In this document: positions 25,675 to 48,720 of the stretch, one piece after another
Numbering within the stretch: the first letter of the stretch is position 1
Layout: each line of letters begins with the position of its first letter
Assembly: GCA_951813255.1 (NCBI GenBank)
Contig: OX638353.1
Coordinates: forward strand, 1,178,001 to 1,242,000
Direction: 5' to 3'
DNA length: 64,000 nt
DNA from: an uncultured Dehalococcoidia bacterium
GTDB lineage: Bacteria > Chloroflexota > Dehalococcoidia > Lucifugimonadales > JAAXIE01
Translations under genes and position numbers: made by a program
The notes under the pieces: generated by a model
Seen by the model: only the letters and a program-made list of their open reading frames with translations
What the model was told of the DNA's origin: nothing
Databases searched by the model: none

Positions 25675-26538
25675 TCAGCCAGAGAAACCCTTCTGTAGCT
25701 TACCAAGGGTGGAATCGAGGTCCCCGACGTACCCTTCCATCAGTTTCAGGTCGTCCTCGGTGAGGTGGGCATAGCGTCGCTGGGAGGCGGCGTACTCCTT
25801 TACTGTCGCCTTGCGGGGGATGTTCTGGCGGGCGAATACGCCGTCTTTCCACTCGTATAGAGGCCACATGCCCGACTCTACAGCCAGCCTCGAGACTTCC
25901 ACGCCCTTGTGGTCGTCGTAGCCCCATGAGGGGTTGCAGGGTGTGAGTATCTGAATGAAGGCAGGCAGTCTGTCGCAAGCTGCCTTGATCTTACGCTCGA
26001 GATCCTGAGGGTGGGAGGTGGAGGCAGTGGCCACGTATTCGGCGCCACTGTGCATCAGCATCAAGGGGAAGTGCTTGGGGTGTCGCAGCTTACCCGCGGG
26101 GCGGACGCTGGTGCGAGCGAGGGGCTGGGTGCTGCCCGTCGCATGACTGCCACTAGCAGCGTGGGCTTGGTTGTCACACACCACGTGTAGGTACTTGTAA
26201 CCCTGTTGGAAGGCGGTGGCGAGGTCCTCCAAGCCAATGTCCACCTGCCCGTCACCATCAATCACGACGATGGGGCGGTCTATGTCGCGCACCTGCATGG
26301 CGGTGAGGAGGCCGACAATACCACTATCATGGGTGCCCAAGCCACTGCGTTGCAGGAAGTCGCGCCCTATGCCACAGCCCTGCCCAAAGATGATGGGGTC
26401 CTGCTTGGCCAGATGGTCGAACGCAATGTGCATCACCAGTCTGGTGGCAAGATTCTCAGGGCAGCCTGGGCACTGGTTGGCGGTCACATTCATGAAGACA
26501 CGCTTGGGCTCGGTCTCCATCACCATCTTGATGGGCAT
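25675..26538 (-). CDS. 2-oxoacid:ferredoxin oxidoreductase, beta (TPP) subunit, second cluster
   Basis: 287 aa TPP-binding subunit: CPGCPENLATRLV with the CxxC near the N-terminus, FGQGCGIGRDF, and the TPP/Mg motif GDGQVDIGLEDLATAF...CDNQAHAASGSHATGSTQ. The substrate loop differs from 10865-11857, so the two operons likely prefer different 2-oxoacids. GGGAG precedes the ATG. Third gene of an operon in the order gamma-ferredoxin, alpha, beta, 39 bp after alpha. Confidence 0.85.
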   Translation of the reverse strand: MPIKMVMETEPKRVFMNVTANQCPGCPENLATRLVMHIAFDHLAKQDPIIFGQGCGIGRDFLQRSGLGTHDSGIVGLLTAMQVRDIDRPIVVIDGDGQVDIGLEDLATAFQQGYKYLHVVCDNQAHAASGSHATGSTQPLARTSVRPAGKLRHPKHFPLMLMHSGAEYVATASTSHPQDLERKIKAACDRLPAFIQILTPCNPSWGYDDHKGVEVSRLAVESGMWPLYEWKDGVFARQNIPRKATVKEYAASQRRYAHLTEDDLKLMEGYVGDLDSTLGKLQKGFSG

Positions 26539-26577
26539 TGTCGTCTCCCTCTCTGGTTACGTATCAGGGGGTGGAGA

Positions 26578-27828
26578 TTACCGGGCCAGTGCTCGGGCCA
26601 ACATGGTCTCGTCCTCAATGGTTTCGAAGTGCCACGCATGCTGTCGCTGGGCGTAGCCGCGACGGGTGGCCTCAAAAGCCTCTTCTGCCATGTACATCAC
26701 GTCGTAGAAGGTGACGTCCCGTCCACCCAGACCTGCGATACGGCCCAAAACAATGGGGGCGTCAACCTGCCCGAACATGGCGCTGCGCAGGTCGTGGTAC
26801 ACCGCGGCTACCGGGTTGCGGTCGAGCACTACGACGGCTTTCACACCCTTGAGGGCCGTGACAAGCTCGTCGCCGGGGAAGGGGCGGAAAGCGCGCACCT
26901 TGACCAAGGCCACCCGCTTGCCCTGTTCCTGCAGAAGCTGGGCGGCGTAGCGGGAAGTAGCTGCTAGAGAACCCATAGATACTACAGCCACATCCGCATC
27001 CTCCAACCCCTCAGCCTCGATGAGGCCACCATAGCCGCGCCCGTTCAAGCGCCGGTAGTCGGCGTGAGCGCTCTCGATGGCCTGCTTGGCGGTCACATTG
27101 AGGGCTTGGTCAAGCTGGAACCGCCGCTCCATGTACTCACGCTCGACGTCGATGTAGCCATAGCCGCTCATACGTGGGCCCGAGTAGTACTGGGCGAAGT
27201 CCAGGTTTTTCACGAAGTCGATGTCTGCCGGGAGTTGGAAGCCGGGAAGAAAGGCGTCGACGGCTTCCTGGGTCGGCAGCTCCACTGGATAGCTGTTGTG
27301 GGATACCTCCCACCCGTCGTACGTCATGAAGGTGGGCAGCAGCACGTTGGGGTCTTCCCCCACACGATAAGCCTGAATCAGGGTATCCACGACATCCTGC
27401 GCGTTTTCGCAGTGATAGTGAATCCAGTGGATGTCACGGTACATCACGGTATCGTGGTCGTCGGTGCGCACTACGGCAGGTGGCTCGAGAGCGCGATGGG
27501 CCACTACCAACACAATGGGTATGCGGGCGTATGAGGCAAATATGAGTTGCTGAGCAGCTATGAGCAGGCCCTCGGAGTTGGTGGCGAAGGCGCACCGCAC
27601 ACCTCCTTGGGTAGCGGTGATCTGGGCGTTCATAGTGCTGCGCTCGTGCTCCAGCTCAATGAGCTTAGCATCGAGATCGCCACGCTGAATCATTCGCGCC
27701 GTCTCCTCGCCGACCTCGTCGGAGGGACCAATGGGGAAGGAGCAGAGCACCTGAATGCGGGCCAGCTTGAGGGCATGGGCGGCTGCCTTATTGCCGGTGA
27801 GGGCAACTCGATTCACGGCTTGGGTCAT
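26578..27828 (-). CDS. 2-oxoacid:ferredoxin oxidoreductase, alpha subunit, second cluster
   Basis: 416 aa. TGNKAAAHALKLARIQVLCSFPIGPSDEVGEE is the N-terminal pyrimidine domain; LIELEHERSTMNAQITATQGGVRCAFATNSEGL is the conserved CoA/TPP-contact segment; VRAFRPFPGDELVTALKGVKAVVVLDRN is the C-terminal transketolase-like domain. The ATG shares one base with the stop of the preceding gene (TAATG), implying coupled translation. Paralogous to 11858-13078 with clear divergence. Confidence 0.86.
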   Translation of the reverse strand: MTQAVNRVALTGNKAAAHALKLARIQVLCSFPIGPSDEVGEETARMIQRGDLDAKLIELEHERSTMNAQITATQGGVRCAFATNSEGLLIAAQQLIFASYARIPIVLVVAHRALEPPAVVRTDDHDTVMYRDIHWIHYHCENAQDVVDTLIQAYRVGEDPNVLLPTFMTYDGWEVSHNSYPVELPTQEAVDAFLPGFQLPADIDFVKNLDFAQYYSGPRMSGYGYIDVEREYMERRFQLDQALNVTAKQAIESAHADYRRLNGRGYGGLIEAEGLEDADVAVVSMGSLAATSRYAAQLLQEQGKRVALVKVRAFRPFPGDELVTALKGVKAVVVLDRNPVAAVYHDLRSAMFGQVDAPIVLGRIAGLGGRDVTFYDVMYMAEEAFEATRRGYAQRQHAWHFETIEDETMLARALAR

Positions 27829-28901
27829 TAGTCCGCCCCTCCCGGCGCATCGCCCTCCTGGCGCAGACGCAGCGGTATGAGCGCCTCCATGCCTGCCCTC
27901 TGGTGGGCCGACACCTCAGGCCAGTGGGGTTCCACCGTCACGTCATCGTAGGCTGGGCGCTCCTTCCTCAACTGGTCTTCGTCCACCATGGTGAGCGCAG
28001 TCCCGACGCACACCTCGACGCAGATGCCACACCCACGGCAGAACTCCACGTCAATGCGGTAGCCCTGATGCTGGAGACCCTCGCGCACAATGAAGCCGGT
28101 GCCATCGGGGCACATCACCTCGCTGATACAACTATTGGGGCAGATGCACTGAGCGTCGTTGCACACTGGCACTTTGTCCCGCCAGACGAAGGGACTGCCC
28201 TGCCGAAAGCCCGGCAGCTTGTCGTAGCGATCGAAGCTGTAGTACTGGGGCAGACTGGAAATCTCGGCGTGCTGTATGCGGGAAGGGCTCCGCTCCGTGC
28301 TGAATTGCACGCCGCCCAGCGCCTGCACCTTGTCGTAGGCCTCCAAGGCTGCCTGCGCATTCAGCTCGCCCAGTCTGCCGGAGAAGTTGTCACGTATGCA
28401 CTCACTGAGGGCTGCCATATCCACGGCCTCGGTGATGCGGGCATAAGCGCCAAGCATGGTGATGCCCACTGGCGGGGGTGTACGCCCCAACAGCCGCTCC
28501 GCGATTTCGGTGGCGTCCACCGTAGCCACGACTCCTTCAAAATCGAAGGGCAGGTCCAGTTCGCTGGGATGCTTGGGGCTGTTCACCAGCAGGACTCCGC
28601 GCTTCATGCGCCCGATGGCGTCCGCAACCAACTCGTGGCTGTTCTCCTTGGCAGTGAGAAGAAGCTCCTCCTGGAATACGACCACCTCTTCGGGGCGGTA
28701 GTTGGCGCAACTGGCCAACCCAGGGGAATCGGATATCTTGACGTAGTTGATGACCGGGGAGCTACGCGCCCGTGTGCCAGGGTAGACGTTGACCGATACG
28801 TAACGCCCTTGGTCGGAATAGAGCTTGGCCAACACCTCGCCCGACTGCACGGAGCCCTGTCCCGACATGCATAGCAGGTTCAACTCTTTCGTAGTGGGCA
28901 T
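27828..28901 (-). CDS. 2-oxoacid:ferredoxin oxidoreductase, fused gamma-ferredoxin subunit, second cluster
   Basis: 357 aa. Residues about 8-180 are a PorG-like gamma domain (MSGQGSVQSGEVLAKL, VYPGTRARSSPV, GVLLVNS). The C-terminal part holds two Cys groups: CNDAQCICPNSCISEVMCP, which is irregular, and CRGCGICVEVC, a canonical [4Fe-4S] set. Compared with the first operon's fusion the first cluster is atypically spaced. The ATG at 28901 is preferred because GGAGGG precedes it; an in-frame ATG at 28922 lacks one. First gene of the operon. Confidence 0.82.
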   Translation of the reverse strand: MPTTKELNLLCMSGQGSVQSGEVLAKLYSDQGRYVSVNVYPGTRARSSPVINYVKISDSPGLASCANYRPEEVVVFQEELLLTAKENSHELVADAIGRMKRGVLLVNSPKHPSELDLPFDFEGVVATVDATEIAERLLGRTPPPVGITMLGAYARITEAVDMAALSECIRDNFSGRLGELNAQAALEAYDKVQALGGVQFSTERSPSRIQHAEISSLPQYYSFDRYDKLPGFRQGSPFVWRDKVPVCNDAQCICPNSCISEVMCPDGTGFIVREGLQHQGYRIDVEFCRGCGICVEVCVGTALTMVDEDQLRKERPAYDDVTVEPHWPEVSAHQRAGMEALIPLRLRQEGDAPGGAD

Positions 28902-29009
28902 ATTGCCCTCCATGGCCGGCACACCCGAATAGCTCCATATTTGCCGGCATTCAGTGTCCGATTATAGCACTTGAAAGACAGACCCACGGGAAGGAGTGAC
29001 ACCAGTTCT

Positions 29010-29180: not shown

Positions 29181-30617
29181 TTGTTCACCAAGCTACTAGG
29201 TATATTCGGAAACAAGACTTCCCCGCCTCCAATAGATGAGGCTACTAAAGCAATAGAGGCCACTGATACCGGTGTAGCCACCGCAAGGCCCCAACCCCCA
29301 CAGCAAGCGCCGCGCCGCCGAGACGAGAGATGCGCCACCCCCGTCGCCTCTACTGCGCCATCTACAAAGCCCGCCTCAAGGCCCACCACCCGCCCAAAGC
29401 GCCGCTCGGGTGGAGTTGCCCAAGGCAGCGCACCCTCTTTCGCCACTGATGGCGTCTTCGGGACTCTGCCAGTACAGGGAGCCGTAGCCCGCGCCCTTGA
29501 TGAGATGGGCTATTCGGAACCGACGCCCATACAAGAGCAGGTGGTACCCCTAGTCCGCAACGGGCGCGACTTGGTGGGGCAGGCACAGACGGGCACCGGC
29601 AAGACTGCCGCTTTCGGCATTCCCTTGATTGAGAAGGTAGACCCCAGCATCGGGTTGCCCCAAGCCTTGGTACTTACTCCTACCCGGGAGTTGGCCAAAC
29701 AGGTCCATGGCGAGATTGCCCGCCTTGGCAAGTACCGGAACATCCAGGCGGTGACGGTCTATGGCGGCCAAGCCATGAGCCGTCAATTAACGGCCTTGGA
29801 GCGCGGTGTTCAGGTCATCGTGGCCACTCCAGGGCGCCTCATGGACCACATGTATCGTGGCACCGTTGACTTGAACAGTGTCTCCATCGTAGTTCTGGAT
29901 GAGGCAGACCAGATGCTGGACATCGGGTTTGCAGAGGATATCGAATACATCCTGAAGTACGTGCCAAAGCCGCGCCAAACCCTGCTCTTCTCCGCCACCA
30001 TGCCGGGCCCCATCCGCAGCCTAGCCCATCGTTACCTGCGAAACCCGGAGTGGATACGCACCGGGGGTGACGCCGAGCCTGTGGAGCAGGTGGCACAGGT
30101 CTACTACGAGGTGGCCACTGAGGACCGTACACCGCTACTGTATGAGCTTATCCAAGACCCAAACGAGGTCGCCCAGTGCCTCATATTCCGGCGTACCAAG
30201 ATAGGCGTCGACCGTTTGGTGTCCGAATTACGGCGTCGCCGACTGGCCGCGGAAGCTATACACGGAGACATGAGCCAAGGACAGCGCGAGGCGGTCATGA
30301 ACAGCTTCCGATCGGGCAAGCTGCGAATCTTGGTGGCCACCAACGTGGCAGCCCGTGGACTGGATATACCGGCAGTGTCCCATGTTGTGAACTACGATAT
30401 GCCCAGCAACCTGGAAGAGTACGTGCATCGCATTGGACGCACCGCGCGCATGGGACGTACCGGCACCGCAGTTACCTTCGTGTCCGAGTGGGACTTCGAC
30501 ATGTTGGACGCGATTCACGCCCATACCGGCGGCGACTTGCAGCCTGGCCGCTGGCCTCACGAGCGGGACGCGGAGGGCGTGGAACCTGTTACGGAGACGC
30601 AGGTCGCAGCGGTTTAG
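29181..30617 (+). CDS. DEAD-box RNA helicase
   Basis: 478 aa ATP-dependent RNA helicase. Motifs in order: Q motif (GYSEPTPIQEQ), AQTGTGKT, PTRELA, TPGR, DEAD, SAT, then RGLDIPAVSHVVNYD and HRIGRTARMGRTG. Before the core is an 80-residue basic, Pro/Thr-rich, disordered extension (ATARPQPPQQAPRRR), where longer DEAD-box proteins normally place it at the C-terminus. The TTG at 29181 has no near ribosome site; GGAGG (29157-29161) sits 7 nt before an in-frame ATT at 29169, which would give an N-terminus MFPSLFTKLL. Probably works in ribosome assembly or mRNA turnover at low temperature. Confidence 0.9.
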   Translation: MFTKLLGIFGNKTSPPPIDEATKAIEATDTGVATARPQPPQQAPRRRDERCATPVASTAPSTKPASRPTTRPKRRSGGVAQGSAPSFATDGVFGTLPVQGAVARALDEMGYSEPTPIQEQVVPLVRNGRDLVGQAQTGTGKTAAFGIPLIEKVDPSIGLPQALVLTPTRELAKQVHGEIARLGKYRNIQAVTVYGGQAMSRQLTALERGVQVIVATPGRLMDHMYRGTVDLNSVSIVVLDEADQMLDIGFAEDIEYILKYVPKPRQTLLFSATMPGPIRSLAHRYLRNPEWIRTGGDAEPVEQVAQVYYEVATEDRTPLLYELIQDPNEVAQCLIFRRTKIGVDRLVSELRRRRLAAEAIHGDMSQGQREAVMNSFRSGKLRILVATNVAARGLDIPAVSHVVNYDMPSNLEEYVHRIGRTARMGRTGTAVTFVSEWDFDMLDAIHAHTGGDLQPGRWPHERDAEGVEPVTETQVAAV

Positions 30618-31615
30618 GTCCCAGGGGCACAGGCCCTGATTACCCGCTTGGCGTCCTCCAAGGCGGTGGGCCCTTCCACACGGGGCGTTACGATGGGGAG
30701 CTTCAGTCCTGCAGCATGATACTCCGCGATTCGGCTGCGACATTCCTCGGCAGTGCCTACGAGAGATATTTCATCGATTAGCCCGGCCGGCACCAACTGA
30801 CGCGCCCGTTCATGCTCCCCTGCCTGCCAAGCCAGCTTCACTTGTTCAATCTCGTCGGGATATCCAGCATCGGACATTAGCTTGCGGTATCGGGGCCAGA
30901 ACCCGCAGTAGGTGGCCATGGGGCCCCGCATTTTATCGCGGGCTTCGTCTTTATCGTCGGAGACGAAGCAGTTAACCAAGCTGGTCACGTCCACGGTGGC
31001 GGGATCTTTGCCAGCCTGCTCTGCTCCCAAGGCCACGTTCTCGGCAGCAACTCTGGCGTGCTCCGGGGTGCACCATGTGAGGATGGTGCCGTCCGATATT
31101 TCGCCGCATATCTGAAGCATCCTGGGGCGGACGGCGGCTACGTAGATGGGCATTTCTTTCCGCTGCGTCTGGAACCAGAAGTCGAATTGTTGGATGTTGG
31201 TGACCTCGCCGGGGTAGGAGATGCGCCCGTCACGTAGCAGCCCGCGTACGATATCTATGCACTCCCGCACCCGCTGCACCGGGTGGTCAAACACCAAGCC
31301 GTGTTCCGGCTCCACCTGCACTTTGTGGCTGGAGCCAAGGCCGAGGATGAAGCGGCCGTGGGAGTAGAGATCCACGGTGGCTGCTGCCATCGCGACTGTT
31401 GGAGCAGTACGGGCGAAGACGCTGCTGATGGCGGTGCCCAGTTGAATTTTGTTTGTGCGCATGGCGATGGCAGTGAGAATAGCGAACTGGTCCCCCGCGT
31501 GGCCCTCGGCCACCCACGCCGACTCGTAACCTAGCTCCTCTGCCAGCACGGCGCACTCGACGATCTCCAAGGGTTCGAGCCCTCTCGAAAAGCCTACACC
31601 TACGCGTCCGGTCAT
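30614..31615 (-). CDS. LLM-class F420-dependent oxidoreductase
   Basis: 333 aa, luciferase-like family of the methylenetetrahydromethanopterin-reductase type, commonly F420-dependent. Blocks seen: VECAVLAEELGYESAWVAEGHAGDQF, TNKIQLGTAISSVFARTAPTVAMAAATVDLYSHGRFILGLGSSH, YVAAVRPRMLQICGEISDGTILTW. Start ATG follows GAGG at about 6 nt. It lies 52 bp downstream of the selenoprotein gene grdB on the same strand and may be the last gene of that cluster, so it could use or make a substrate or product of the reductase. The 3' end overlaps the helicase stop by four bases. Confidence 0.87.
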   Translation of the reverse strand: MTGRVGVGFSRGLEPLEIVECAVLAEELGYESAWVAEGHAGDQFAILTAIAMRTNKIQLGTAISSVFARTAPTVAMAAATVDLYSHGRFILGLGSSHKVQVEPEHGLVFDHPVQRVRECIDIVRGLLRDGRISYPGEVTNIQQFDFWFQTQRKEMPIYVAAVRPRMLQICGEISDGTILTWCTPEHARVAAENVALGAEQAGKDPATVDVTSLVNCFVSDDKDEARDKMRGPMATYCGFWPRYRKLMSDAGYPDEIEQVKLAWQAGEHERARQLVPAGLIDEISLVGTAEECRSRIAEYHAAGLKLPIVTPRVEGPTALEDAKRVIRACAPGT

Positions 31616-31667: not shown

Positions 31668-32939
31668 CTATTTTTGCAGGGCCTCCAGGGCTTGGGTGAC
31701 TAGCTGGCGGCGCAGTTCCTTTTCCTCTTGGGGGGAGACGCTGGCGTCGCCTAGGACGTGGACTATGCCGTGGCCTAGGACTACTCGATTGGCGCCGACC
31801 ATGCGGGCCACGGGGGCTACGGAGGTTACCTGGGCTACGGGGATGCCGGCTTTTTCCAGTTCGGTTGCGATCGCAGCGCCGCTGCGAGTGGATGTCCCTC
31901 AAGCGGAGGTGAGGACGACAGCATCAACCCCGGATTCCTTGAGTTTCTGAGCCATCTCACGGCCTAGTCGACGGCTATTGGCCAAGGGGTTGGCAAGACC
32001 GGATGTGGAGAGGAACTCGTCGAAGACTTTGCCGATGATGCCTGCCTCCTCCATTTCGCGGAGGACGTCGACGGGGACCAAGCGGTCGGGGTCCTGCTGT
32101 ACGTAGCGGGTGTCGTAGCCGCGGTGGGCCACCTCGTAGTCCTCGCCACGCAGGTCGGCGACCTCGGAGATGTCGTAGGAACCCCAGATGTGGGCAGCGT
32201 AATTGGGGATGCGGTCGGGGTTACCTTTGGGCACGAGACCACCGTCGGTGACGACCGCAATGGTAGCGCCGGAGAGGTCCTGGATGGGGGCGGGAGCTTC
32301 CACGGGTTCGAAGGTTGTGACGACCAGTTCCGAGTCGAAGGCGTCGCCAGCGCCCTTGGCCAGAGCCATGGCTACGAGGCGCTGGGCACTGGTCTCGCTC
32401 ACCATCTCATCGCGCAGGATTCCACGGGGGAAGTAGCCGTCGTCGATGGGGCGTCCCACAGGCTCGCGTGCGATCAGCTTGTGGGCTAGGGCGGACGTGC
32501 GGGCCATGACATCCTGCATGGCGGTGGCATTGGCTCCGGAGTCGACGATGCAGAGGTCTTGGCGGTAGAGATCGACGCCGGGGTTCTCCTCGGCCATGGC
32601 CGTGACGGCAGGTATGCCAAGTTCGTCCTGGACGGCAGCGCAGAGGTGGCCGGCAACAATGCCGTAGCGACCTGCCTCGAAGCATGGGCCCGCGACGAAG
32701 ATGTCGACCTCGGCGGCTTTGACGGCGTTAAGCACCTGTTCGGTGACTTCTTCTATGTTCTCTGCGCCGTAGTTGTCGCCACAGACGAAGGTAGTGACCA
32801 CGGTGGCGTCGGGGCCCATGGTCTGCTGGAGGAGGCGTCCGGGCCCGACGGGGCCATCGCGTTGCTCAAGGGGTGCGCCCGCGTGCTCCTCTCCGCCTAG
32901 TCCGCCGAAGAACTGGTTGAGGTAGTGGGCTATGTGCAT
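31668..32939 (-). CDS. grdB: glycine-reductase-type selenoprotein B (GrdB-like), internal TGA read as selenocysteine
   Basis: 423 aa when the TGA at 31901-31899 is read as Sec347; the frame stays open for 76 more codons to a TAG. The flanking residues VVLTSA-U-GTSTRSGAAIATELEKAGIP align with the GrdB active-site block known as VILTST-U-GTCTRCGATMVKEIERAGIP. GrdB is the substrate-binding selenoprotein of glycine/sarcosine/betaine reductase, passing a carboxymethyl group to GrdA. Here both downstream Cys are Ser. N-terminal MHIAHYLNQFFGGLGGEE is typical. ATG at 32939 is preceded by AAGGAGGG; a longer frame to 33011 has no ribosome site. A SECIS-like hairpin lies at 31872-31886. Located after grdE. 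Confidence 0.9.
31872..31886 (-). promoter_or_regulatory. bacterial SECIS-like hairpin of grdB
   Basis: Perfect 6-bp stem CGCAGC/GCTGCG with loop GGC. Twelve nt separate the TGA from the stem and 18 nt separate it from the loop; the loop starts with G. This fits the published bacterial SECIS consensus (loop 16-37 nt past the UGA, G in the first two loop positions). Confidence 0.75.
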
Positions 32940-33026
32940 GTGGCTCCCTCCTTTATTGCTGGCACGTCTCATTCGTTGTCGATGAGACATGACCGGGGTT
33001 GAACTTGGCATCAGTTGAATCGGGCA

Positions 33027-34289
33027 TCAATAGACGAAAGACCTGATGCGGGATGCGCCCTGCTGGTTGGTGGCTCCGCAGATGTTGGCGGCGTTGATTT
33101 CGCGCAGTTCGCCCAAGCCAGCCGCGGTGGCGGGGCTTCCAGCGACGATGCGGTCGGGTTCGGGCATGGACCACTTGGTGTCCATCCCTCCGCAGTAGAC
33201 GATGGCGTCGATCTCGGGGAAGTTGAAGAGCAGAGCCGACTCGGCGCGACGGTCTTGGGACATGTCGGTCACCTGGACGGCAGTGCGCATGCCGAGGGCT
33301 TCGCAGAGGCGGGCGGTCTCGGCCATGTCGGCGTGGGGTGCGCCGCCGCCGTACTTGGTGAGCACGACGATGTCGGCACCCAAGTTCCACTTGGCGAGTT
33401 GGGAGGCCATCATGCAGTTGCGGTTGCGGTCGTCGCCGTCAGAGGCGGCCATGGTGGCGATGGTTCCGACGAAGTTGATTTCGCCTGCTGTGTGACGCCG
33501 ATAAAGCTCGAGAACAACAGGGTGGTTCTGGTAGAAGTAGCTTTCGACCTGCATGTTCTGGTAGGCGCAGACGAGGGCCCCGTCGAGCCATTCATTGGGG
33601 TGTAAGGGCACGGGCACCATGCCAGCGGTGTTGTTGCCGTAGAGGACCTGCTCGTCGACCTCGGCTACCCGCTGCCGGGACTGAATCTGGGCGATGTAGG
33701 CCACGCGTGGGAGGGTATTACGGGCAGGGGCGGCGGGACCTTCGAGATCGAACACCTCCCTATGTGCGGGCTCGTGGCCCTCGGCGGCCAAGGCGAGGTG
33801 AACGGCTGCTTTGACCGACGCGCCACGCAGGGCGTGAAGGCGGGCACGGCGGGGGAGGTCGGGTATTATGTGGGGAGCGATGACGACGTGATGCAGGCCA
33901 CTGAAGTCGGTGGTCTCGGCTGGAGGGCCATTCATCTCGAGCATCTTGCCTGCAGCGACCGGGGCTGATTCGTCGAGCACCGTGACGGCCGCTCCACGGA
34001 GGACGTGGGTCTCACCCTGGCCGGCGACGGCGTAGGGACCGAGGATGCCGGGGAAATCTGAGCCTGATCCCGATTCCTTGGCGCGAGGCTCGAGGATGTC
34101 GAAGACAATACCAAGTCGGCAGGACTCGCCGGGGGAGACGAGTTCGATATCGACGCTCTCCAGACGGCGGTCTTCGAGCAGGAGGCGGGTCAGGGCCTGC
34201 TTGCTGACCTCAAGGCGTTGGCCGTCGAGGGCGGTGTGGTCGCCGAAGGATATATCAGAGACGGGGTGGATGGAGAGGGTCAGGTGCAT
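33027..34289 (-). CDS. grdE: glycine-reductase-type proprotein (GrdE-like)
   Basis: 420 aa. GrdE is the proprotein of reductase component B; it is cleaved at a Cys that becomes a pyruvoyl group holding the substrate amine. Matching blocks: FGDHTALDGQRLEVSKQAL, PGESCRLGIVFDILEPRAK, FPGILGPYAVAGQGETHVLRGAAV, and NEWLDGALVCAY followed by NFVGTIAT. Cys241 in DGALVCAY is the only Cys near the expected cleavage site, which I recall as Cys242 in the clostridial enzyme; the surrounding SGNC motif is not kept. AGGAGCG precedes the ATG. It lies 87 bp before grdB. Confidence 0.85.
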   Translation of the reverse strand: MHLTLSIHPVSDISFGDHTALDGQRLEVSKQALTRLLLEDRRLESVDIELVSPGESCRLGIVFDILEPRAKESGSGSDFPGILGPYAVAGQGETHVLRGAAVTVLDESAPVAAGKMLEMNGPPAETTDFSGLHHVVIAPHIIPDLPRRARLHALRGASVKAAVHLALAAEGHEPAHREVFDLEGPAAPARNTLPRVAYIAQIQSRQRVAEVDEQVLYGNNTAGMVPVPLHPNEWLDGALVCAYQNMQVESYFYQNHPVVLELYRRHTAGEINFVGTIATMAASDGDDRNRNCMMASQLAKWNLGADIVVLTKYGGGAPHADMAETARLCEALGMRTAVQVTDMSQDRRAESALLFNFPEIDAIVYCGGMDTKWSMPEPDRIVAGSPATAAGLGELREINAANICGATNQQGASRIRSFVY

Positions 34290-34391
34290 GGGCGCTCCTG
34301 TTGGGAGATCTGAAGAATCACAGTATCACGCTGCATAATTTTAGCCCGTATGTAGGCAGTCCTAGCTGGAATGGGTGGGGAGTACGCAACA

Positions 34392-34467
34392 TTCGTAGCT
34401 AACATTGCAGTCCAACCATATCTGAAACAAATATTTTTGTATCTGGATCTCCTGCAATTTCTGCAAT
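34392..34467 (-). repeat. intergenic element with conserved inter-arm sequence, copy C
   Basis: In the 418-bp grdA-grdE gap. On the minus strand ATTGCAG occurs twice (34467-34461, 34458-34452), then TCCAGATACAAAAA and TTTCAGATATGG, then CTGCAAT (34410-34404) and TAGCTACGAA. The motifs are those of copies A and B, with another arm sequence; here the last arm precedes the AGCTACGAA core. No gene supported in this gap. Confidence 0.6.
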
Positions 34468-34707
34468 TTGGTCGCTGCTCACATACGATTCGGGGCTGAA
34501 ATGATTGCGGACTTCTCTGCCAATCGGTATCACGATTCGCGATAGGTGAGGGGCGCAGAGAAAGCTGCTTGTGGGCTGGGTTGTTGGGTCAGCACGATGA
34601 GGGTACATGTCCCCCATGATAGCGACGACGGGGGGCGGGCGTCGATAGGTAAATGTCAGGGTTGGTGGGTGGTGGATGGGCTGGCAGTGAAGGGGAAGTT
34701 GGAGGGG

Positions 34708-35184
34708 CTATTGGCCAGCTTCTGAGCGGACTTGGCGAAGGGCGTCGGCTATGGAGTCCACATCCATGGCCAGTTCGGCCAAGCCGATGTGCTCATCGTA
34801 GACTTGAGGATCGACCTGCTCTTTGATCTCGGCTTCGGTGACGTGGTAGACAGGCAGGTTGAGACCAATGCCGGCTAGGGAGCCCGCCCATGAAGGGTCA
34901 CCTTGGGTTACGGTAATGCCGTAGAGACGGCTACTTTCGGGGTTAGGCGTACCGAGGAGGACCACCAAGTCCGCCTCTTTTCCCGACTGGGTCATGGACT
35001 CGACGACTCTCTTGATTTCTTCCTGACCGTCCAGGTCAAGGGCACCAGCGGATGTTCAAACGAAGCAGTGGGTGGCCTCCAAGACCACTTGAGCGCCAGC
35101 ACTCTGGGCGCAGAGGGCGAGAGATGCGCCCTGCACGCCGTCGCGTTCTCCCAGGGCGATAGCCCACTTGCCTTTCAAATCCAC
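34708..35184 (-). CDS. grdA: glycine-reductase-type selenoprotein A (GrdA), internal TGA read as selenocysteine
   Basis: 158 aa, the usual GrdA length. The GTG at 35184 follows GAGG, and the TGA at 35058-35056 is residue 43, in the signature THCFV-U-TSAGALDLDGQEEIK (GrdA has CFVU with Sec at about 44). The rest (VVLLGTPNPESSRLYGITVTQGDPSWAGSLAGIGLNLPVYHVTEAEIKEQVD) matches GrdA to the end. GrdA is the small thiol-selenol carrier that accepts the carboxymethyl group from GrdB, releases it as a ketene-like thioester to component C, and is re-reduced by thioredoxin. If the TGA were a stop only a 42-residue fragment would be made. SECIS-like hairpin at 35022-35040. Confidence 0.93.
35022..35040 (-). 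promoter_or_regulatory. bacterial SECIS-like hairpin of grdA
   Basis: Stem CTTGACC/GGTCAGG (7 bp, one U-G) with loop TGGAC, beginning 15 nt after the TGA so that the loop lies 22 nt past it; G is the second loop base. Confidence 0.75.
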
Positions 35185-35211
35185 GTCTTTACCTCACTCA
35201 GCCGGACTGCG

Positions 35212-36633
35212 TTACGCAGATGGATTGCGTTCCAGGATGAAGGACATGCCGTCGGACATGTGGGTCATGCGTCCGAGGAAGAGGCTGCCCTTGGCCAAGA
35301 ACATGGCCCGCTGCATCCCGCCAGCCATGATACCGTCGATTGCATGGGCGAGGAAGGGCACTGCAGAGGCGATGTGACCTTGGGTGGGCGAGAAGCCGGG
35401 CATCCCGTGCTGGCGGACGAAAGCAGGAATGTCCTCGCGTCCGATCTGTTTGTCCAAGGCTGCCATGGCGGCGATGAGGCGGTAGTTCTGGGCAGGCACG
35501 TCCCCGGATGCTGCGGGCTCGGTTATTTCGGGGTTGTGCAACTCGGTGGCGTATTTGTCCACATCGTCGAGGTGCAGGCCTAGGCGCACCAGGGGTTCGC
35601 GCACCAAGCTCCCGAGGATAGCCTGCTGGGAGGAACCGGCACCTACGGTATGGCGACCAACGGAATCGAGGCGCAGGACAGGGTGGACGCCGTCGTCGGC
35701 TGAGACGAGGACAGCCACGCCGACGAGGATGTCCTCCAGGACGGGCATCTCTGCTTCAAGGTGGCCTTGGAACTTCATGCCGAGCTTGGCTAGGGAGCAA
35801 CCTCCTACCACGGCCACGTGGTCGTAGAGCCCGGAATTCACGAAGGCAGCGGCCATCACGAGACCATGGACCGGGCCGCAGCAGAAGGCCTTTACGTCGG
35901 CTCCGGTGGCGTTGTCGCAACCGCAAGCCTCGGCGACTGCCTTGGCTAGATTTCCTCCACCCCGCTGGTACCGGTCGCCAACGGCTTCCTCGCCGCAGTT
36001 GATGACGTAGTCGATGGTAGTGGGCTCCACCTGTTCACCCTGCAACAGGGCTCGGAGAGCGGATACGGCGGTGGCCTTGCAGGCTAGGTTCTCGAGGAGA
36101 ATGTCGGCGGTCAGGGAGGCGTCTTCGTTATGGCCGGATGCGATGCAGCCTACGAGACGGCCATCTATCAAGTGCAGAGGCAAGGCCTCGGCAGTGGAGT
36201 CATCGAGCAGGTTCTGGATGTGGGCCAGGGTATGGTGTGAGTTGTCCAGGGACTGCATATCCTGAGCGAACCCCTCTTCCAATGAGACCAGGTTGAAGGA
36301 ATCACATCCTTTGAGTAGGGCGTAGAAATGCTCCTCAGACATGATTTGTCCGTGAGGACCGGAAGGGGACGCATCGCCCGTCACGTCGAACCAAGGGCGA
36401 TCAATGTCCCATAGCGCGTCGGGGCTGAGATCGCCCAGCAACACGCGGTGGGGCGGATAAGAGACTGCGTCTTCGAAGCTGCGAAGGCGGGCACGGATGG
36501 CGAGCCGCAGACTGGGATCTTTGGCCAGTTCGCGGCTGGGCTTGGAGCCGTGTTCCACCAAGCCGGGGGTATGGGCTAGGGAGAAGCGAGCGCCACGCAA
36601 TACAGCGCGCCGGATGGTGTTTGGCGCTGTCAT
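35212..36633 (-). CDS. grdC: glycine-reductase-type protein C, beta subunit (GrdC)
   Basis: 473 aa thiolase-fold (KAS III-like) protein of the GrdC family, which in glycine reductase takes the acetyl unit from GrdA as a thioester before release as acetyl phosphate. N-terminal GARFSLAHTPGLVEHG and LRSFEDAVSYPPHRVLLGDLSPDAL match GrdC; the core has VINCGEEAVGDRYQRGGGNLAKAVAEACGC and FCCGPVHGLVMAAAFV with the likely active-site Cys, and HTVGAGSSQQAI. No GrdD (alpha subunit of protein C, PlsX-like, with phosphotransacylase role) is present nearby, so the thioester may go to another acceptor such as CoA. Twenty-seven bp upstream of grdA. Confidence 0.86.
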   Translation of the reverse strand: MTAPNTIRRAVLRGARFSLAHTPGLVEHGSKPSRELAKDPSLRLAIRARLRSFEDAVSYPPHRVLLGDLSPDALWDIDRPWFDVTGDASPSGPHGQIMSEEHFYALLKGCDSFNLVSLEEGFAQDMQSLDNSHHTLAHIQNLLDDSTAEALPLHLIDGRLVGCIASGHNEDASLTADILLENLACKATAVSALRALLQGEQVEPTTIDYVINCGEEAVGDRYQRGGGNLAKAVAEACGCDNATGADVKAFCCGPVHGLVMAAAFVNSGLYDHVAVVGGCSLAKLGMKFQGHLEAEMPVLEDILVGVAVLVSADDGVHPVLRLDSVGRHTVGAGSSQQAILGSLVREPLVRLGLHLDDVDKYATELHNPEITEPAASGDVPAQNYRLIAAMAALDKQIGREDIPAFVRQHGMPGFSPTQGHIASAVPFLAHAIDGIMAGGMQRAMFLAKGSLFLGRMTHMSDGMSFILERNPSA

Positions 36634-36681
36634 GGAACTCGCGGCGTCATCACGTAGGATTCGGGCCTGCGTAATGGGCCT

Positions 36682-37875
36682 CTATCGCGACAGCCCGAAA
36701 GCAGTGCCCTTCACCTCGGGGTCTTCGGAGGCATTCATGTGGTTTCCGAGGTCGACTATAAGGCTGCCCATGGCGGTCTCTCCCCAGAACCAGCCATGCA
36801 ACTCGTCCTCACCGGCACTGGGACGCTGCTCCATGCGCGCCTCGTAGTAAAAGGCCTTGAGGTCGTCAATGCACCAGCGAATGTACAAGGGATCGGAAAC
36901 ACCTTCCGGTTTTTCGGGGGCCTCGCGTCCGTTGCCTTGGGAATAGTCCTGGAGGTAGCGCACGATGCCACGGAAGCGCCGCTGGGGTACGCCGGTCAGG
37001 CCCACGAGGGTACGGCCGCCTTGGTTGTCGACCCAGCGCTCGTAGTATTCGCGCAATGAGGTCAACTCGTCGGCGGGGTCGGAGAGGGACTTGGCACTGT
37101 CACCCTGGACGGCAGACGCTTGGAGCAGGTTGACCGGTCCCTCGCCATTTTCGGGGAATTCACCCAAGACTGGTGTATCGTCCTTCTGCAGCAGACCGAG
37201 GGCGGCCGCGATGACCTTGTGCTGGAAGTCAGCGTCGTTGGCCCGGCCCAAGGCGGAACCGTAGGGGAAGGGAACGGCCAAGGCCCGGGGGGCCTTTACG
37301 CGAGCAGCGTGCTCCTTGACCAGAGCTATGCAGGTGGTGCTGAGGCCGGCCTCTTCGAAGACTCTGGCGATCACACAGACTGTGTGAGTGCAGAGGGGTC
37401 AAGTGGGTGTCAGGATGACGGCATCGACGCCTTCGGCCCGCAGGAGCTGGGCGACCTCGGGCGCGCCGTCAGTCAATATCTTGCTGGGGTCGCGCTGGGC
37501 GCCCATGAAGGAGTAGAAGTTCTGGGAGATGCTGCCGACCTGGCCCCGGTCTCGGATCTCTCTCATGCGGTCAACGGGGAATGTTATGTTGACATCCTTA
37601 TAGAGGGGCACGTGGTCGAAGCCGATGCTGCTGCTGCTGTGGCTCATGAGGACGTCCTTGCCATCTGCATCAGCGGGGATCGCACGGAAACCCGAGTCGC
37701 CACGACCGAAAGGCTTGTCGCTGCGCAGGTGGAGCCCGGCGCTGGTCACAAGGGCCAGCTTGGCTTCGGAGAGAGGTTTGCGCATGGGAGTGACAGGGGA
37801 GTCGTCATGTTCCATGCAAGGGAACATGATGGCAGAGTTGCGCTGGGCTTCGCTGAGTTCTTCGAGCCTTGGCAT
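36682..37875 (-). CDS. D-proline-reductase-like selenoprotein (PrdB-like), internal TGA read as selenocysteine
   Basis: 397 aa if the TGA at 37401-37399 is Sec159. Residues 30-200 match PrdB-type proteins: LALVTSAGLHLRSDKPF, GFRAIP, DVNITFPVDRMREI, SFMG, then VDAVILTPT-U-PLCTHTVCVIARVFEEAGL. Here the Sec motif is U-x-x-C, keeping one Cys. The C-terminal 150 residues are not part of short PrdB and hold a Trp/Arg-rich domain of unknown role. Both halves join without frame change through the TGA. GGAGGAG precedes the ATG. First gene of the cluster; no PrdA-type partner is present, so GrdE may serve it. Substrate unknown. Confidence 0.85.
37371..37387 (-). promoter_or_regulatory. bacterial SECIS-like hairpin of the prdB-like gene
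   Basis: Perfect 7-bp stem TCACACA/TGTGTGA with loop GTC, 11 nt after the TGA, so the loop is 18 nt past it and starts with G. Confidence 0.75.
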
Positions 37876-37932: not shown

Positions 37933-38166
37933 CTACAGGCGAGGCTTGTAGCCCAAGACAACCTCCAGCTCGCCTGGCTCTAGCAGGACCTGGATCTCGG
38001 TCGCATACTCTACTTTACCGTCCTTCCAGATTGGAAAAGAGCCGACTGTCGTAATGGCCTCGTACTGGGCCTTGATGGCGGCCCTACGCAGGGCGGCCGC
38101 GGCAGCAAGGGTGTCGGGGCTCCAGGCCTGGGATGTCACCTCGTGCGTGCCGTTGTCATCGCGCAT
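37933..38166 (-). CDS. small protein downstream of zeta-like kinase
   Basis: 77 aa, charged and soluble, with a helical TLAAAAALRRAAIKAQYEAI segment and a C-terminal strand-rich part. It overlaps the end of the zeta-like gene by 11 nt, so they are translated together. Unrecognised; by position it may be the antidote or partner of that kinase, which is inference only. Confidence 0.6.
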   Translation of the reverse strand: MRDDNGTHEVTSQAWSPDTLAAAAALRRAAIKAQYEAITTVGSFPIWKDGKVEYATEIQVLLEPGELEVVLGYKPRL

Positions 38167-38698
38167 CGATCAGTCTCCCTTGTTCAACAGGTCTCGGTGG
38201 ACTCACTGTAGCATCGTACATTACCCACTCGTCAACCAAGCCTTTGTATATCAGGTCAAAGTTGCGCAGGCCGGAATCGAATCTGCGCCTAATGTCCTCT
38301 TCCGGCACGTGATGACCACCCCTGCGCACGCGGTGTTGCACCCGGTCTACGGCGATGTGGGCCGATGGAAGGCGCAGATAGTGGAGCGCCACCCAATAGC
38401 CCTGTTCCTGCCACTTGGGAATCATGCGGGCAAACCCACGCCCGCTTAGGGTAACTTCGAAGGCGAAGCTGTCACCCCGGCTGACGTAGTTATCAATCAT
38501 TTCCAGCATGAGACGCCCCGCCCGAACGGCAGGTACTTCCGGTTGGAATGGGTTAAGGCCAGCAGCGATGAGGTCGGCGTTGATGAAAATAGGGCAGCCG
38601 GCCTCGTTGGGAAGGAATTCGGTGGCAAATGTGGTCTTGCCTGCGCCGTTTGGGCCAGCGATGATCAGAATCTTCTTGGCTGAGGTCATGGAGCGCAT
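38156..38698 (-). CDS. zeta-toxin-like P-loop kinase
   Basis: 180 aa ABC-type ATPase/zeta-toxin family. Walker A GPNGAGKTT at about 15-23, then FINADLIAAGLNPF, the DxxxxE-like FEVTLSGRG (zeta toxins use a similar FEGT segment to hold UDP-GlcNAc) and RRGGHHVPEEDIRRRF with basic phosphate-binding residues. Zeta toxins phosphorylate peptidoglycan precursors, but many chromosomal relatives have unknown targets. No epsilon antitoxin precedes it; the small gene after it overlaps. ATG at 38698 or 38689 both possible. Confidence 0.78.
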   Translation of the reverse strand: MRSMTSAKKILIIAGPNGAGKTTFATEFLPNEAGCPIFINADLIAAGLNPFQPEVPAVRAGRLMLEMIDNYVSRGDSFAFEVTLSGRGFARMIPKWQEQGYWVALHYLRLPSAHIAVDRVQHRVRRGGHHVPEEDIRRRFDSGLRNFDLIYKGLVDEWVMYDATVSPPRPVEQGRLIDAR

Positions 38699-46641: not shown

Positions 46642-47184
46642 CTAGAAGAAGTTGCTGACGTTCTTGGCCAGCAGCACGTTCTGGTCCAGAACAGCCTTGC
46701 GGCGGGAGATCTTCCACGAGTCGCCGTTCCTGCGAAGGGTGTCTTCCCGGCAACCCACGTAGAAGTCCTGCTCGGTCTCGCCACGAGTGCGGTACATGAG
46801 GAAGTTGGAGAATACCTGCACCTCGTCGCTCTTATCGGTTTCGTGCACCTCGATGTTGGTGATCAGGTGCCGGGTGCGGGAGGGTGGGTCCTCGGCCCAC
46901 GCCATGCCGGTATCCAAGCGGGCTACACGGCGCTCCAAGCTGTCCTTGTCCTCATCGAGGATGGCGAGTTCGTCTTCCTTGGAGATCTCGTCCTCGACGT
47001 AGCGCTCCTGGTCAGCGATGGAGATGGCCTTGCTGATTCGCGGGTAGCGGGTGGTTCGCACGGGCACCCAGTAGTGGGCATCCTCAGTCCAGAGTTCCAG
47101 CCACTCATGCAGACGCCGGTTGTCCAGAAGGCGCGCCTCCTGGTACATGAACTGCTCTATCTCGCGTACGGTGTCCTGGTCCAT
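46642..47184 (-). CDS. ring-hydroxylating dioxygenase, beta subunit
   Basis: 180 aa, NTF2-like small subunit of Rieske dioxygenases. Typical N-terminus IEQFMYQEARLLDNRRLHEWLELWTEDAHYWVPV, then RHLITNIEVHETDKSDEVQVFSNFLMYRTR and the C-terminal RKAVLDQNVL. It gives structural support to the alpha3beta3 hexamer. It follows its alpha gene after 48 bp on the same strand; a GGGAGG site is near the start. Paralogue: 58768-59283. Confidence 0.92.
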   Translation of the reverse strand: MDQDTVREIEQFMYQEARLLDNRRLHEWLELWTEDAHYWVPVRTTRYPRISKAISIADQERYVEDEISKEDELAILDEDKDSLERRVARLDTGMAWAEDPPSRTRHLITNIEVHETDKSDEVQVFSNFLMYRTRGETEQDFYVGCREDTLRRNGDSWKISRRKAVLDQNVLLAKNVSNFF

Positions 47185-47232
47185 GGCAACAGCCTCCCTT
47201 TGGTCGAGTCTCCTAGCGAAATCCTTGGATGA

Positions 47233-48513
47233 TCAGGGCGTGTTCGTCTCTATGTCGGCCCAGCTGTTGGCCTCCATGAATCGTGCCCACCGGGCATAGA
47301 ACCGGCGGTGGGTGTTCTCACTCATGCGGTAGTCGCTTGTCCACGACATCAGGTCTTCGTTGAATGAGTCGTGGCCTATGCCCATCTGGTTGTTGAGGGG
47401 GATGCGCCGGGACACAGGCCCCTTGGCGGTGACGGTGCACTCCTGCCAGTTGTCCATGTCGTCCTGCTCGAAGGTGCCCGAGGGGCTAAAGCCGCGGATA
47501 GAGCCCAAGCGGATGTGTTCCTTGACCTCGGCCGGAGCAGCTTTATCGCAGAAGGCCCACGCCGTCACCTCTACCTTGTCCGGGCCCTTGGGGTGCCACA
47601 CCCGGAAGCTTCGCGAGCCAGCACGAATCATGGAGAAGTTGGGAAACAGCGTACCCACAAAGGGATTGAACAGGTCGCGCCGCGGCCCCAGCCGGTCCCT
47701 GATTTCCTGTTTCACGTCCGCCTCGTACTGCCGTAGCACCGGGATGGGGGGAGTCGGATCATCGTCGGCGCCGAAGCAGATAATATTCACGGGCCCTGCC
47801 GCCACAATGGAGCCTCCCGTCTGGGGATCAATGGCAGTTGAGGCGGCGAAGGAGTTCCTGATAGCAGACAGATGGCTCCAGCCCACATGATAGGCGTCCC
47901 CGCCGAAGTTCTCTGCCGCCAACTTCCAGTTGCAGGGGATAGTCCACTTGAACATCCCGCCGAACACCTCTACTCCGCCCTCGCGCCGGTCGAAGAAGTT
48001 GTCGAGGTACCAAGTCGCCTCACCCAAGTAGTCCAGCAGGGGTGGGGCGTCGGCATCGAAGGTTGCGAACACCAGCCCTTTGTACATCTCCAGCTTTGCC
48101 ACGGGGACAAGCCCCCACTTGGAGGTGTCCAACTCGTCGTAGTAGGCCTCCTTCAGGCTAGGCACGGCGATGAGCTTGCCATCGGTGCCATAGGTCCAGC
48201 CGTGATAGGCGCAAATGAAGGCTGATGCGTTACCGGAGTCGGCCCGGCACACCCTGTTGCCTCTATGGCGACAGACGTTGAGGAAGGCGCCAATCTTGCC
48301 AGAAGAGTCGCGCACTACCAGCACCGGGTCCTCTCCCATATATGTAGAGAAGAAGTCCCCCGGCTGGGCCACCTGGCTTTCATGACAGAGAAAGAGCCAC
48401 GAGCGGGCAAAAATCTGCTCCAGCTCCTGCCTGTAAATCTCCTCGTCGTTAAAGATGCGCCGGTCTAGCAGCCCATCCTCCGAATTGACCAGTCCCCTGA
48501 CTTCGGTAGCCAC
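47233..48513 (-). CDS. ring-hydroxylating dioxygenase, alpha subunit
   Basis: 426 aa. Rieske ligands C-R-H and C-A-Y-H in CRHRGNRVCRADSGN and FICAYHGW; iron site in NFGGDAYHVGWSH. The GTG at 48513 has GGAGG 7 nt before it and gives the same N-terminus as the 1201-2505 paralogue; a longer frame to 48687 lacks a site and adds unlike residues. Forms an alpha-beta pair with 46642-47184. About 75% of the N-terminal third looks identical to 1201-2505, so the two derive from a duplication and only this one kept a beta gene. No ferredoxin or reductase nearby. Confidence 0.93.
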   Translation of the reverse strand: MATEVRGLVNSEDGLLDRRIFNDEEIYRQELEQIFARSWLFLCHESQVAQPGDFFSTYMGEDPVLVVRDSSGKIGAFLNVCRHRGNRVCRADSGNASAFICAYHGWTYGTDGKLIAVPSLKEAYYDELDTSKWGLVPVAKLEMYKGLVFATFDADAPPLLDYLGEATWYLDNFFDRREGGVEVFGGMFKWTIPCNWKLAAENFGGDAYHVGWSHLSAIRNSFAASTAIDPQTGGSIVAAGPVNIICFGADDDPTPPIPVLRQYEADVKQEIRDRLGPRRDLFNPFVGTLFPNFSMIRAGSRSFRVWHPKGPDKVEVTAWAFCDKAAPAEVKEHIRLGSIRGFSPSGTFEQDDMDNWQECTVTAKGPVSRRIPLNNQMGIGHDSFNEDLMSWTSDYRMSENTHRRFYARWARFMEANSWADIETNTP

Positions 48514-48720
48514 AATCCCACCTCCGCCATATGTGCTGGGAGCCCGGAAACAGCCCTGCGCACTACATCGCGCCGTATCAAGGGGTGTAGCATGCGCCCT
48601 TGGGGTTGTCAAGTTGCTCGGCCGGGAACTGGGATTGTGTCGGCCTAAACCCAGCCAATTTAACGCTGGGCTGAGCCATACCCCCACACGTCCCGACGCG
48701 ACAAGGTTTGTCGAGTTCTA

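What the first reader, a model, noticed from the sequence alone, without database searches (positions are those of the whole stretch)
31668..37875. Selenoprotein reductase cluster (PrdB-like, GrdC, GrdA, GrdE, GrdB) in an oxygenase-rich genome segment
Three of the five genes carry in-frame TGA at the known Sec positions of GrdA, GrdB and PrdB-like proteins. The set mixes glycine-reductase parts (GrdA, B, C, E) with a proline-reductase-like selenoprotein, and lacks GrdD and thioredoxin genes found in clostridial operons. The neighbourhood is dominated by oxygenases and flavin monooxygenases, an unusual setting for a system known from Stickland fermenters. It may be a reductase for an unknown amine, ether or N-heterocycle. 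Same-strand LLM gene (30614-31615) may belong to it.
Basis: partly seen in the sequence, partly recalled or inferred. Interest (0 to 1): 0.92.

Follow-up and report, generated by a model that had tools for sequence, protein, structure and literature searches.

The report
Selenoprotein reductase without its phosphate-making subunit
A bacterium that is likely a relative of ocean SAR202 bacteria carries a five-gene set, three genes with in-frame TGA codons that are predicted to be read as selenocysteine, that resembles the glycine-reducing enzyme of fermenting anaerobes but whose genome shows no gene for the acetyl-phosphate-making subunit, so the enzyme is predicted to act on something other than glycine and would pass its product to coenzyme A instead.

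Summary
Minus-strand genes at 37875-31668 encode a PrdB-like protein (PrdBL), GrdC, GrdA, GrdE and GrdB; three carry one in-frame TGA at the family's Sec position. The genome has tRNA-Sec, SelA, SelB and SelD, and homologues keep TGA or Cys there: most likely real selenoproteins.

It is a variant of the glycine/sarcosine/betaine reductase family. (1) No GrdD above the cut-off in this genome or 12 other genomes with Grd genes; two control records rang. (2) GrdE lacks the NCVxxC pyruvoyl site, as do most class relatives. (3) GrdB has UGTSTRSG, not UGTCTRCG, a loss confined to 6 of 22 class sequences. (4) PrdBL is not PrdB proper and has an extra helical domain.

Best reading: component B displaces a good leaving group from X-CH2-COO-, GrdA carries the carboxymethyl group, and FabH-like GrdC probably delivers acetyl to CoA. 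Substrate and product are inferred. PrdBL's role is open, though it appears to share contigs with GrdC elsewhere.

The parts
36682..37875 (-). PrdB-like selenoprotein (PrdBL), 397 aa: PrdB/GrdB-type Sec domain (about 1-231) plus helical C-terminal domain (about 253-395); motif TPTUPLC
37399..37401 (-). in-frame TGA, predicted Sec159 of PrdBL (Cys in 9, TGA in 26 of 35 aligned)
37371..37387 (-). candidate bSECIS hairpin of PrdBL (7 bp, 3-nt loop GUC)
   Evidence: z -2.95
35212..36633 (-). GrdC (component C, beta subunit), FabH/KAS III-like fold in the model
   Evidence: (606.7 bits)
35881..35883 (-). invariant Cys251 of GrdC (FC in AFCCGP); correspondence to the FabH active-site Cys is recalled
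34708..35184 (-). GrdA selenoprotein, 158 aa, GTG start, motif CFVU
   Evidence: (174.7 bits)
35056..35058 (-). in-frame TGA, predicted Sec43 of GrdA
35022..35040 (-). candidate bSECIS hairpin of GrdA (7 bp, loop UGGAC); not more stable than shuffles
   Evidence: z -0.51
34290..34707 (-). 418-nt gap between grdA and grdE, perhaps a boundary between two transcription units (inferred)
33027..34289 (-). GrdE-type component B alpha subunit, 420 aa, without the NCVxxC pyruvoyl motif
31668..32939 (-). GrdB-type selenoprotein, 423 aa, motif SAUGTSTRSG (no UxxCxxC)
31899..31901 (-). in-frame TGA, predicted Sec347 of GrdB
31871..31887 (-). candidate bSECIS hairpin of GrdB (7 bp, loop GGC); not more stable than shuffles
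   Evidence: z -0.90
30614..31615 (-). LLM-family (luciferase-like) oxidoreductase gene, 52 nt after grdB; membership uncertain

Best explanation
The five genes encode a variant of the glycine/sarcosine/betaine reductase system whose GrdE lacks the pyruvoyl motif, whose GrdB lacks the two cysteines beside its predicted Sec, and whose genome shows no GrdD, so it is predicted to reduce a carboxymethyl compound with a good leaving group rather than glycine and would likely yield acetyl-CoA instead of acetyl phosphate. Predicted cycle: GrdE-GrdB binds X-CH2-COO-; the GrdB selenolate displaces X directly, without Schiff-base activation; because no neighbouring cysteine can cleave the selenoether, the carboxymethyl group is handed to the Sec of GrdA (CxxU); GrdC takes it as an acetyl thioester, presumably on Cys251, while GrdA closes to a selenide-sulphide, which thioredoxin would reopen; GrdC, a FabH-like fold, then passes acetyl to CoA. 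Shown: gene content, TGA sites, Sec machinery genes, motif losses, no GrdD hit, FabH-like fold of the GrdC model. Inferred: Sec insertion, lack of a pyruvoyl group, substrate class, every catalytic step, CoA as acceptor. PrdBL is a separate predicted Sec protein with a UxxC motif that could resolve its own selenoether as proposed for PrdB; whether it feeds GrdA/GrdC is open.
For: GrdD: 0 of 13 genomes with Grd genes above the cut-off, this one included; 5 of the 13 gave only stray matches of 19.5-21.8 bits against a cut-off of 350 (it covers 12 of the 14 GrdA-positive genomes). 0 of 400 phylum genomes at E <= 1e-30. Controls: A. noterae 581 bits and Photobacterium DA100 549 bits, each just after grdC. 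GrdC was seen in stretches from 9 of the other 12. GrdE: references from A. noterae, Photobacterium and P. acidaminophilum (GrdG) carry GNCVxxC; the window clade has a 3-residue gap there, and 0 of 120 closest homologues have Cys at the aligned column. GrdI of a betaine reductase also lacks the NC pair, though it keeps one Cys close by. GrdB: UGTSTRSG in window and 5 relatives, UGTCTRCG in the GrdB, GrdF and GrdH references. The same kinds of loss are described for FarB and FarE of fluoroacetate reductase (PMC10838667, passages). GrdC model: 1014 PDB matches at E <= 1e-3, FabH- and OleA-type on top; Cys251 invariant in 40 of 40. The window's GrdE and GrdB fall in a clade with L077 and the f47 genomes, support 1.000 in both trees.
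Against: The window's GrdE has one Cys (DGALVCAYQ) that could line up with the pyruvoyl Cys if the 3-residue gap were placed elsewhere; 23 of 120 homologues have some Cys in that 13-column stretch. Other pyruvoyl enzymes form the group from serine (PMC3689656, abstract start in a listing), and some homologues have Ser near there. Only 2 of the 20 class GrdE sequences keep NCVxxC, so the loss is common in the class and says little about this clade alone. GrdH keeps UGTCTRCG, so betaine is not specially favoured. The published GrdB and GrdF motifs fail for all 22 class sequences tested, not only for the window, so that failure is weak evidence. A phosphotransacetylase or another acyl acceptor was not searched for. 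itself warned that nothing rang in it. The genome is 94% complete with 7.7% contamination. No transporter lies in the operon to hint at the substrate.
Confidence: 0.48

Rival explanations
1. It is a betaine reductase: GrdE/GrdB act as GrdI/GrdH, releasing trimethylamine from glycine betaine, an abundant marine osmolyte (recalled).
For: GrdI of E. gilvus also lacks the NC pair of the pyruvoyl site; window GrdB and GrdH both fail the GrdB and GrdF motifs; 11 of the 120 listed GrdC homologues carry the JGI name betaine reductase (my count).
Against: GrdH model 411.9 bits against a cut-off of 775; GrdH keeps UGTCTRCG, window has UGTSTRSG; the trees put GrdH/GrdI with the clostridial group, not with the window clade; no BCCT transporter next to the cluster, as there is in E. 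gilvus (window neighbours judged by eye).
Confidence: 0.2
2. It is a halo-acid (fluoroacetate-type) reductase like FarEB: the Sec attacks a C-halogen bond of a haloacetate.
For: The same two losses as FarB/FarE (PMC10838667); FarE is the second-best NCBIfam model for GrdE (175.5 bits); an MFS gene lies beside one related cluster (L079), and far has an MFS transporter.
Against: FarE model far below its cut-off of 675; neither a transporter nor a radical SAM gene among the cluster genes; the supply of haloacetates in the habitat is unknown.
Confidence: 0.15
3. Ordinary glycine or sarcosine reductase that has drifted; the acetyl thioester is released by hydrolysis or by a phosphotransacetylase.
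For: The sarcosine GrdF/GrdG models are among the best NCBIfam hits; glycine reductases are reported in Dehalococcoidia (PMC9751293, passages); motif failure is class-wide, 22 of 22, so it does not single out the window.
Against: GPCFEAGRYG has Glu where the glycine and sarcosine references have Asn; no NCVxxC; no UxxCxxC; GrdF and GrdG models far below their cut-offs.
Confidence: 0.2
4. PrdBL is a substrate-binding part that GrdC-GrdA serve; GrdE-GrdB-LLM is a second, separate transcription unit.
For: PrdBL-GrdC-GrdA are 48 and 27 nt apart, then comes a 418-nt gap; 6 of the 17 PrdBL clusters P0122-P0138 report the same longest-contig length as a GrdC cluster (48813, 21133, 4313, 1492469, 5793, 49946), one of them also as a GrdE cluster (read off by eye).
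Against: PrdBL matches occur in 132 of 393 class genomes at E <= 1e-10 (GrdB cross-hits among them), GrdA in only 14; four named homologues have no Grd genes within 10 kb. Of the other 13 GrdA genomes, 6 have listed matches that stop at residue 229-270, 5 have only weak matches (1e-11 to 1e-14, ranges not listed) and 2 have none.
Confidence: 0.25
5. The TGA codons are real stops and the genes are decaying.
For: Two of the three hairpins are not unusually stable.
Against: TGA or Cys at the site in the homologues aligned, Sec machinery genes present, open coding-like frame after the TGA.
Confidence: 0.03

Closest known systems
Glycine reductase as in Acetoanaerobium noterae (GrdABCDE)
   Same: GrdA CxxU selenoprotein, GrdB Sec at the same site, GrdE-type partner, GrdC with the conserved Cys
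   Different: A. noterae has GrdD directly after GrdC, the NCVSAC site and UGTCTRCG; none of these was found in the window
Fluoroacetate reductase FarEB of Cloacibacillus porcorum MFA1 (PMC10838667, passages read)
   Same: component B described as lacking the CxxC beside Sec and the two GrdE cysteines
   Different: FarE model far below its cut-off; the far operon has an MFS transporter and a radical SAM protein and is thought to use protein A and C from elsewhere
Betaine reductase GrdH/GrdI (Enterococcus gilvus record)
   Same: GrdI lacks the NC pair
   Different: GrdH keeps UGTCTRCG; operon has GrdD and a BCCT transporter; separate clade
D-proline reductase PrdA/PrdB
   Same: PrdBL's N-terminal domain resembles PrdB (TIGR04483, 156.7 bits)
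   Different: below the PrdB cut-off of 300; no PrdA among the cluster genes; extra helical C-terminal domain; UPLC where P. acidaminophilum PrdB has UGTC
Marine PrdB selenoproteins of the Sargasso Sea (42 genes, PMC1088965) and Global Ocean Sampling (235, PMC2398784); passages read
   Same: abundant UxxC PrdB-type selenoproteins in sea water
   Different: the passages read do not link them to GrdA/GrdC or describe the C-terminal domain
Glycine reductases of serpentinite-hosted Dehalococcoidia (PMC9751293, passages read)
   Same: GrdB/GrdE in what is likely the same bacterial class
   Different: window fails that paper's GrdB and GrdF motifs, as do the other 21 class sequences tested; GrdC and GrdD have 0 occurrences in its main text

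Membership tests
Selenoprotein genes | In-frame TGA at a position that is Sec or Cys in homologues | tested here: met
Selenoprotein genes | Sec machinery (tRNA-Sec, SelA, SelB, SelD) in the genome | tested here: met
Selenoprotein genes | bSECIS hairpin just after the TGA | tested here: inconclusive
   hairpins predicted at a fitting spacing, unusually stable only for PrdBL; consensus recalled
Glycine/sarcosine/betaine reductase complex (wide family) | GrdA, GrdC and a GrdB/GrdE pair | tested here: met
Glycine/sarcosine/betaine reductase complex (wide family) | GrdD, the component C alpha subunit | tested here: not met
   controls
Glycine reductase | GrdE pyruvoyl site NCVxxC | tested here: not met
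   gap-placement caveat; 18 of 20 class GrdE sequences lack it too, the window among them
Glycine reductase | published GrdB motif (PMC9751293) | tested here: not met
   the 2 GrdB references match, 22 of 22 class sequences do not
Sarcosine reductase | published GrdF motif; NF040794/NF040793 above cut-off | tested here: not met
   452.5 of 800 and 185.1 of 780 bits
Betaine reductase | NF040795 (GrdH) above cut-off; UxxCxxC as in the GrdH reference | tested here: not met
   411.9 of 775 bits; UGTSTRSG
Fluoroacetate reductase | NF053623 (FarE) above cut-off | tested here: not met
   175.5 of 675 bits
Fluoroacetate reductase | loss of CxxC in B and of the two E cysteines | tested here: met
   with the gap-placement caveat; feature taken from PMC10838667; no Far sequence was at hand to align
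D-proline reductase | TIGR04483 above cut-off | tested here: not met
   156.7 of 300 bits
D-proline reductase | PrdA partner gene | tested here: inconclusive
   none among the six cluster genes (GrdE reaches 18.4 of 700 bits); the rest of the genome was not searched for PrdA
All | enzyme activity and substrate | not testable with these tools
   needs purified protein

The most novel reading that the evidence does not exclude
A third branch of selenium-dependent carboxymethyl chemistry, spread through marine Dehalococcoidia: a direct-displacement reductase that needs neither pyruvoyl activation nor GrdD, turns an onium or halo-acetate into acetyl-CoA in bacteria rich in oxygenases, and in some lineages is fed by PrdBL as an alternative, self-resolving selenoprotein in place of component B.
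Probability: 0.25. Interest if true: 0.82.

Novelty: new variant of a known kind. Interest (0 to 1): 0.62.

Why it matters
Glycine reductase is the textbook selenium route to acetyl phosphate in anaerobic fermenters. If many members of a bacterial class run GrdA-GrdC without GrdD, then either phosphate is not the only acyl acceptor or the pathway serves a different end, carbon assimilation through acetyl-CoA. The missing pyruvoyl and CxxC sites mark a substrate class that can be tested directly and could show how uncultured bacteria open C-N, C-S or C-halogen bonds of small acids.

Tried and rejected

Literature: 'SAR202' with 'selenoprotein', 'glycine reductase' or 'betaine reductase' gave 0 papers. 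Seven other searches listed at most 20 papers each; none of the listed titles or abstract starts describes a GrdD-less Grd system. Only open-licence papers are held. Passages were read in PMC13188914, PMC1088965, PMC10838667, PMC2398784, PMC9751293, PMC3091704 and PMC10298544; no whole paper was read.

Not reached: the contigs behind the protein-database clusters (PrdBL-GrdC linkage rests on equal contig lengths read from tables), phosphotransacetylase, acetate kinase and PrdA in this genome, GrdD in G063 and G176, gene order beyond the contigs fetched. Absence of GrdE on contigs with PrdBL and GrdC was not concluded, since only the top 120 clusters are listed. Tree and motif counts use the loci fetched (19 GrdE and 21 GrdB sequences besides the window), not every genome.


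Full report
What is there. On the - strand of the window, from 37875 down to 31668, lie five genes: PrdB-like (PrdBL), grdC, grdA, grdE and grdB; an LLM gene follows at 31615-30614. Gaps are 48, 27, 418, 87 and 52 nt, so there may be two transcription units, PrdBL-grdC-grdA and grdE-grdB-LLM (inferred). Pfam and NCBIfam name GrdA, GrdC, GrdE and GrdB family members; PrdBL matches the PrdB model below its cut-off.

The TGA codons. PrdBL, GrdA and GrdB each have one in-frame TGA. Homologues keep TGA, or have Cys, at the same column: 26 and 9 of 35 for PrdBL, 14 of 14 GrdA above the cut-off, and each of the 22 long GrdB rows. The genome carries genes for tRNA-Sec, SelA, SelB and SelD; a thioredoxin gene ends 37 nt before tRNA-Sec. 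Hairpins are predicted at a fitting spacing, but only one is unusually stable. Sec insertion is therefore very likely, not shown.

Whose genome. The genome is one unnamed 3.4-Mb contig, 94% complete. The named records with the nearest PrdBL genes are four Dehalococcoidia, SAR202 or Chloroflexi assemblies and one alphaproteobacterium, and some GrdE and GrdC homologues carry Dehalococcoidia and SAR202 names. Membership in that class is inferred; 'class' below is the tool's own grouping.

What is missing. GrdD, the partner of GrdC in acetyl phosphate formation, is not found: 0 of 13 genomes with Grd genes above the cut-off of 350 bits, 5 with stray matches of 19.5-21.8 bits, and 0 of 400 phylum genomes at E <= 1e-30. 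That last answer warned that nothing rang anywhere, so I added controls: A. noterae (581 bits) and Photobacterium DA100 (549 bits), 2 of 2. The 13 include 12 of the 14 GrdA-positive genomes; G063 and G176 were not tested. GrdC was seen in 10 of the 13 (the window's and 9 others, fetched stretches only).

What is changed. Aligned with references, the window's GrdE clade lacks GNCVxxC; 0 of 120 closest homologues have Cys at that column, and 23 of 120 have a Cys somewhere in the 13-column stretch around it. The window's single Cys there could be aligned otherwise, so 'no pyruvoyl' is likely, not proven. The loss is common: of 20 class GrdE sequences only 2 (L083, L084) keep the site. GrdB reads UGTSTRSG in the window and five relatives, 6 of 22 class sequences, against UGTCTRCG in four references; the other 16 keep one or both cysteines. 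The published GrdB and GrdF motifs hit the matching references (2 GrdB, 1 GrdF) but none of the 22 class sequences, so they do not single out the window; GPxF[NF]AGRYG has Glu in the window. Loss of both sites is described for fluoroacetate reductase (PMC10838667, passages).

GrdC. Its model (mean pLDDT 85.3) matches FabH- and OleA-type enzymes, and Cys251 is invariant in 40 of 40 and in the 12, three references included. Such enzymes move acyl groups between Cys and CoA or ACP (established knowledge). With no GrdD, transfer to CoA is the simplest outlet; it is an inference, and GrdC of GrdD-bearing references has the same Cys.

PrdBL. It has a PrdB-like domain with a TPTUPLC motif and a helical C-terminal domain (model pLDDT 89.7). 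For PrdB a cysteine is proposed to cleave the selenoether (PMC3091704, passages); PrdBL has the UxxC to do so, the window's GrdB has not. PrdBL matches occur in 132 of 393 class genomes (GrdB cross-hits among them, match list cut), GrdA in 14. Both facts stand; its role is open.

Neighbourhood. Related grdE-grdB genes sit near SBP_bac_5 or BPD transporter genes (L085, L089, L091), thioredoxin (L085), a pyridine nucleotide-disulphide oxidoreductase that looks like thioredoxin reductase (L084) or an MFS gene (L079). In four genomes of family f47 (L079, L080, L081, L095) grdC-grdA and grdE-grdB are divergent pairs, with no PrdBL in the stretches fetched beyond GrdB cross-matches.

Known or new. 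Dehalococcoidia glycine reductases and marine PrdB selenoproteins are in print (PMC9751293, PMC1088965, PMC2398784). The GrdD-less, motif-altered set linked to a PrdB-like selenoprotein was not seen in the listings of ten searches of an open-licence library. Verdict: real, a new variant of a known kind, substrate unknown.

Noticed in passing
window 37933-38698 (-): Zeta-toxin-like kinase gene (PF06414) with a 77-aa ORF overlapping it, just upstream of PrdBL; looks like a toxin-antitoxin pair.
   Followed up: partly
window 11858-14273 and 25675-28922 (-): Two sets of pyruvate/2-oxoacid:ferredoxin oxidoreductase-type genes, with CoA-transferase, amidase and AMP-binding genes between them.
   Followed up: partly
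window 46642-48687 (-): Rieske ring-hydroxylating dioxygenase alpha and beta genes.
   Followed up: no
G000:C1:15765-16688 and 3386799-3387722: Two SelD genes of near-equal score, each with a TGA, near the two ends of the single contig: perhaps an untrimmed overlap of a circular chromosome.
   Followed up: no
window 8301-9065 (+): SelD-like ORF (95.9 bits, below cut-off); perhaps a HypE or AIR-synthase relative.
   Followed up: no
L016:10690-12944: IS21-type transposase and IstB genes lie inside a PrdBL gene of an alphaproteobacterial assembly.
   Followed up: partly
window 34399-34617 (-): 72-aa ORF in the 418-nt gap between grdA and grdE; no evidence that it is a gene.
   Followed up: no
L132 (Photobacterium sp. 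DA100 plasmid record): Grd genes with GrdD and two tandem grdA genes, each with a TGA, in a gammaproteobacterium.
   Followed up: no
G343 and G021 (class relatives): Four and three full-length GrdB paralogues in one genome, each with one TGA; two of the G343 copies have ABC transporter genes nearby (L089, L091).
   Followed up: partly
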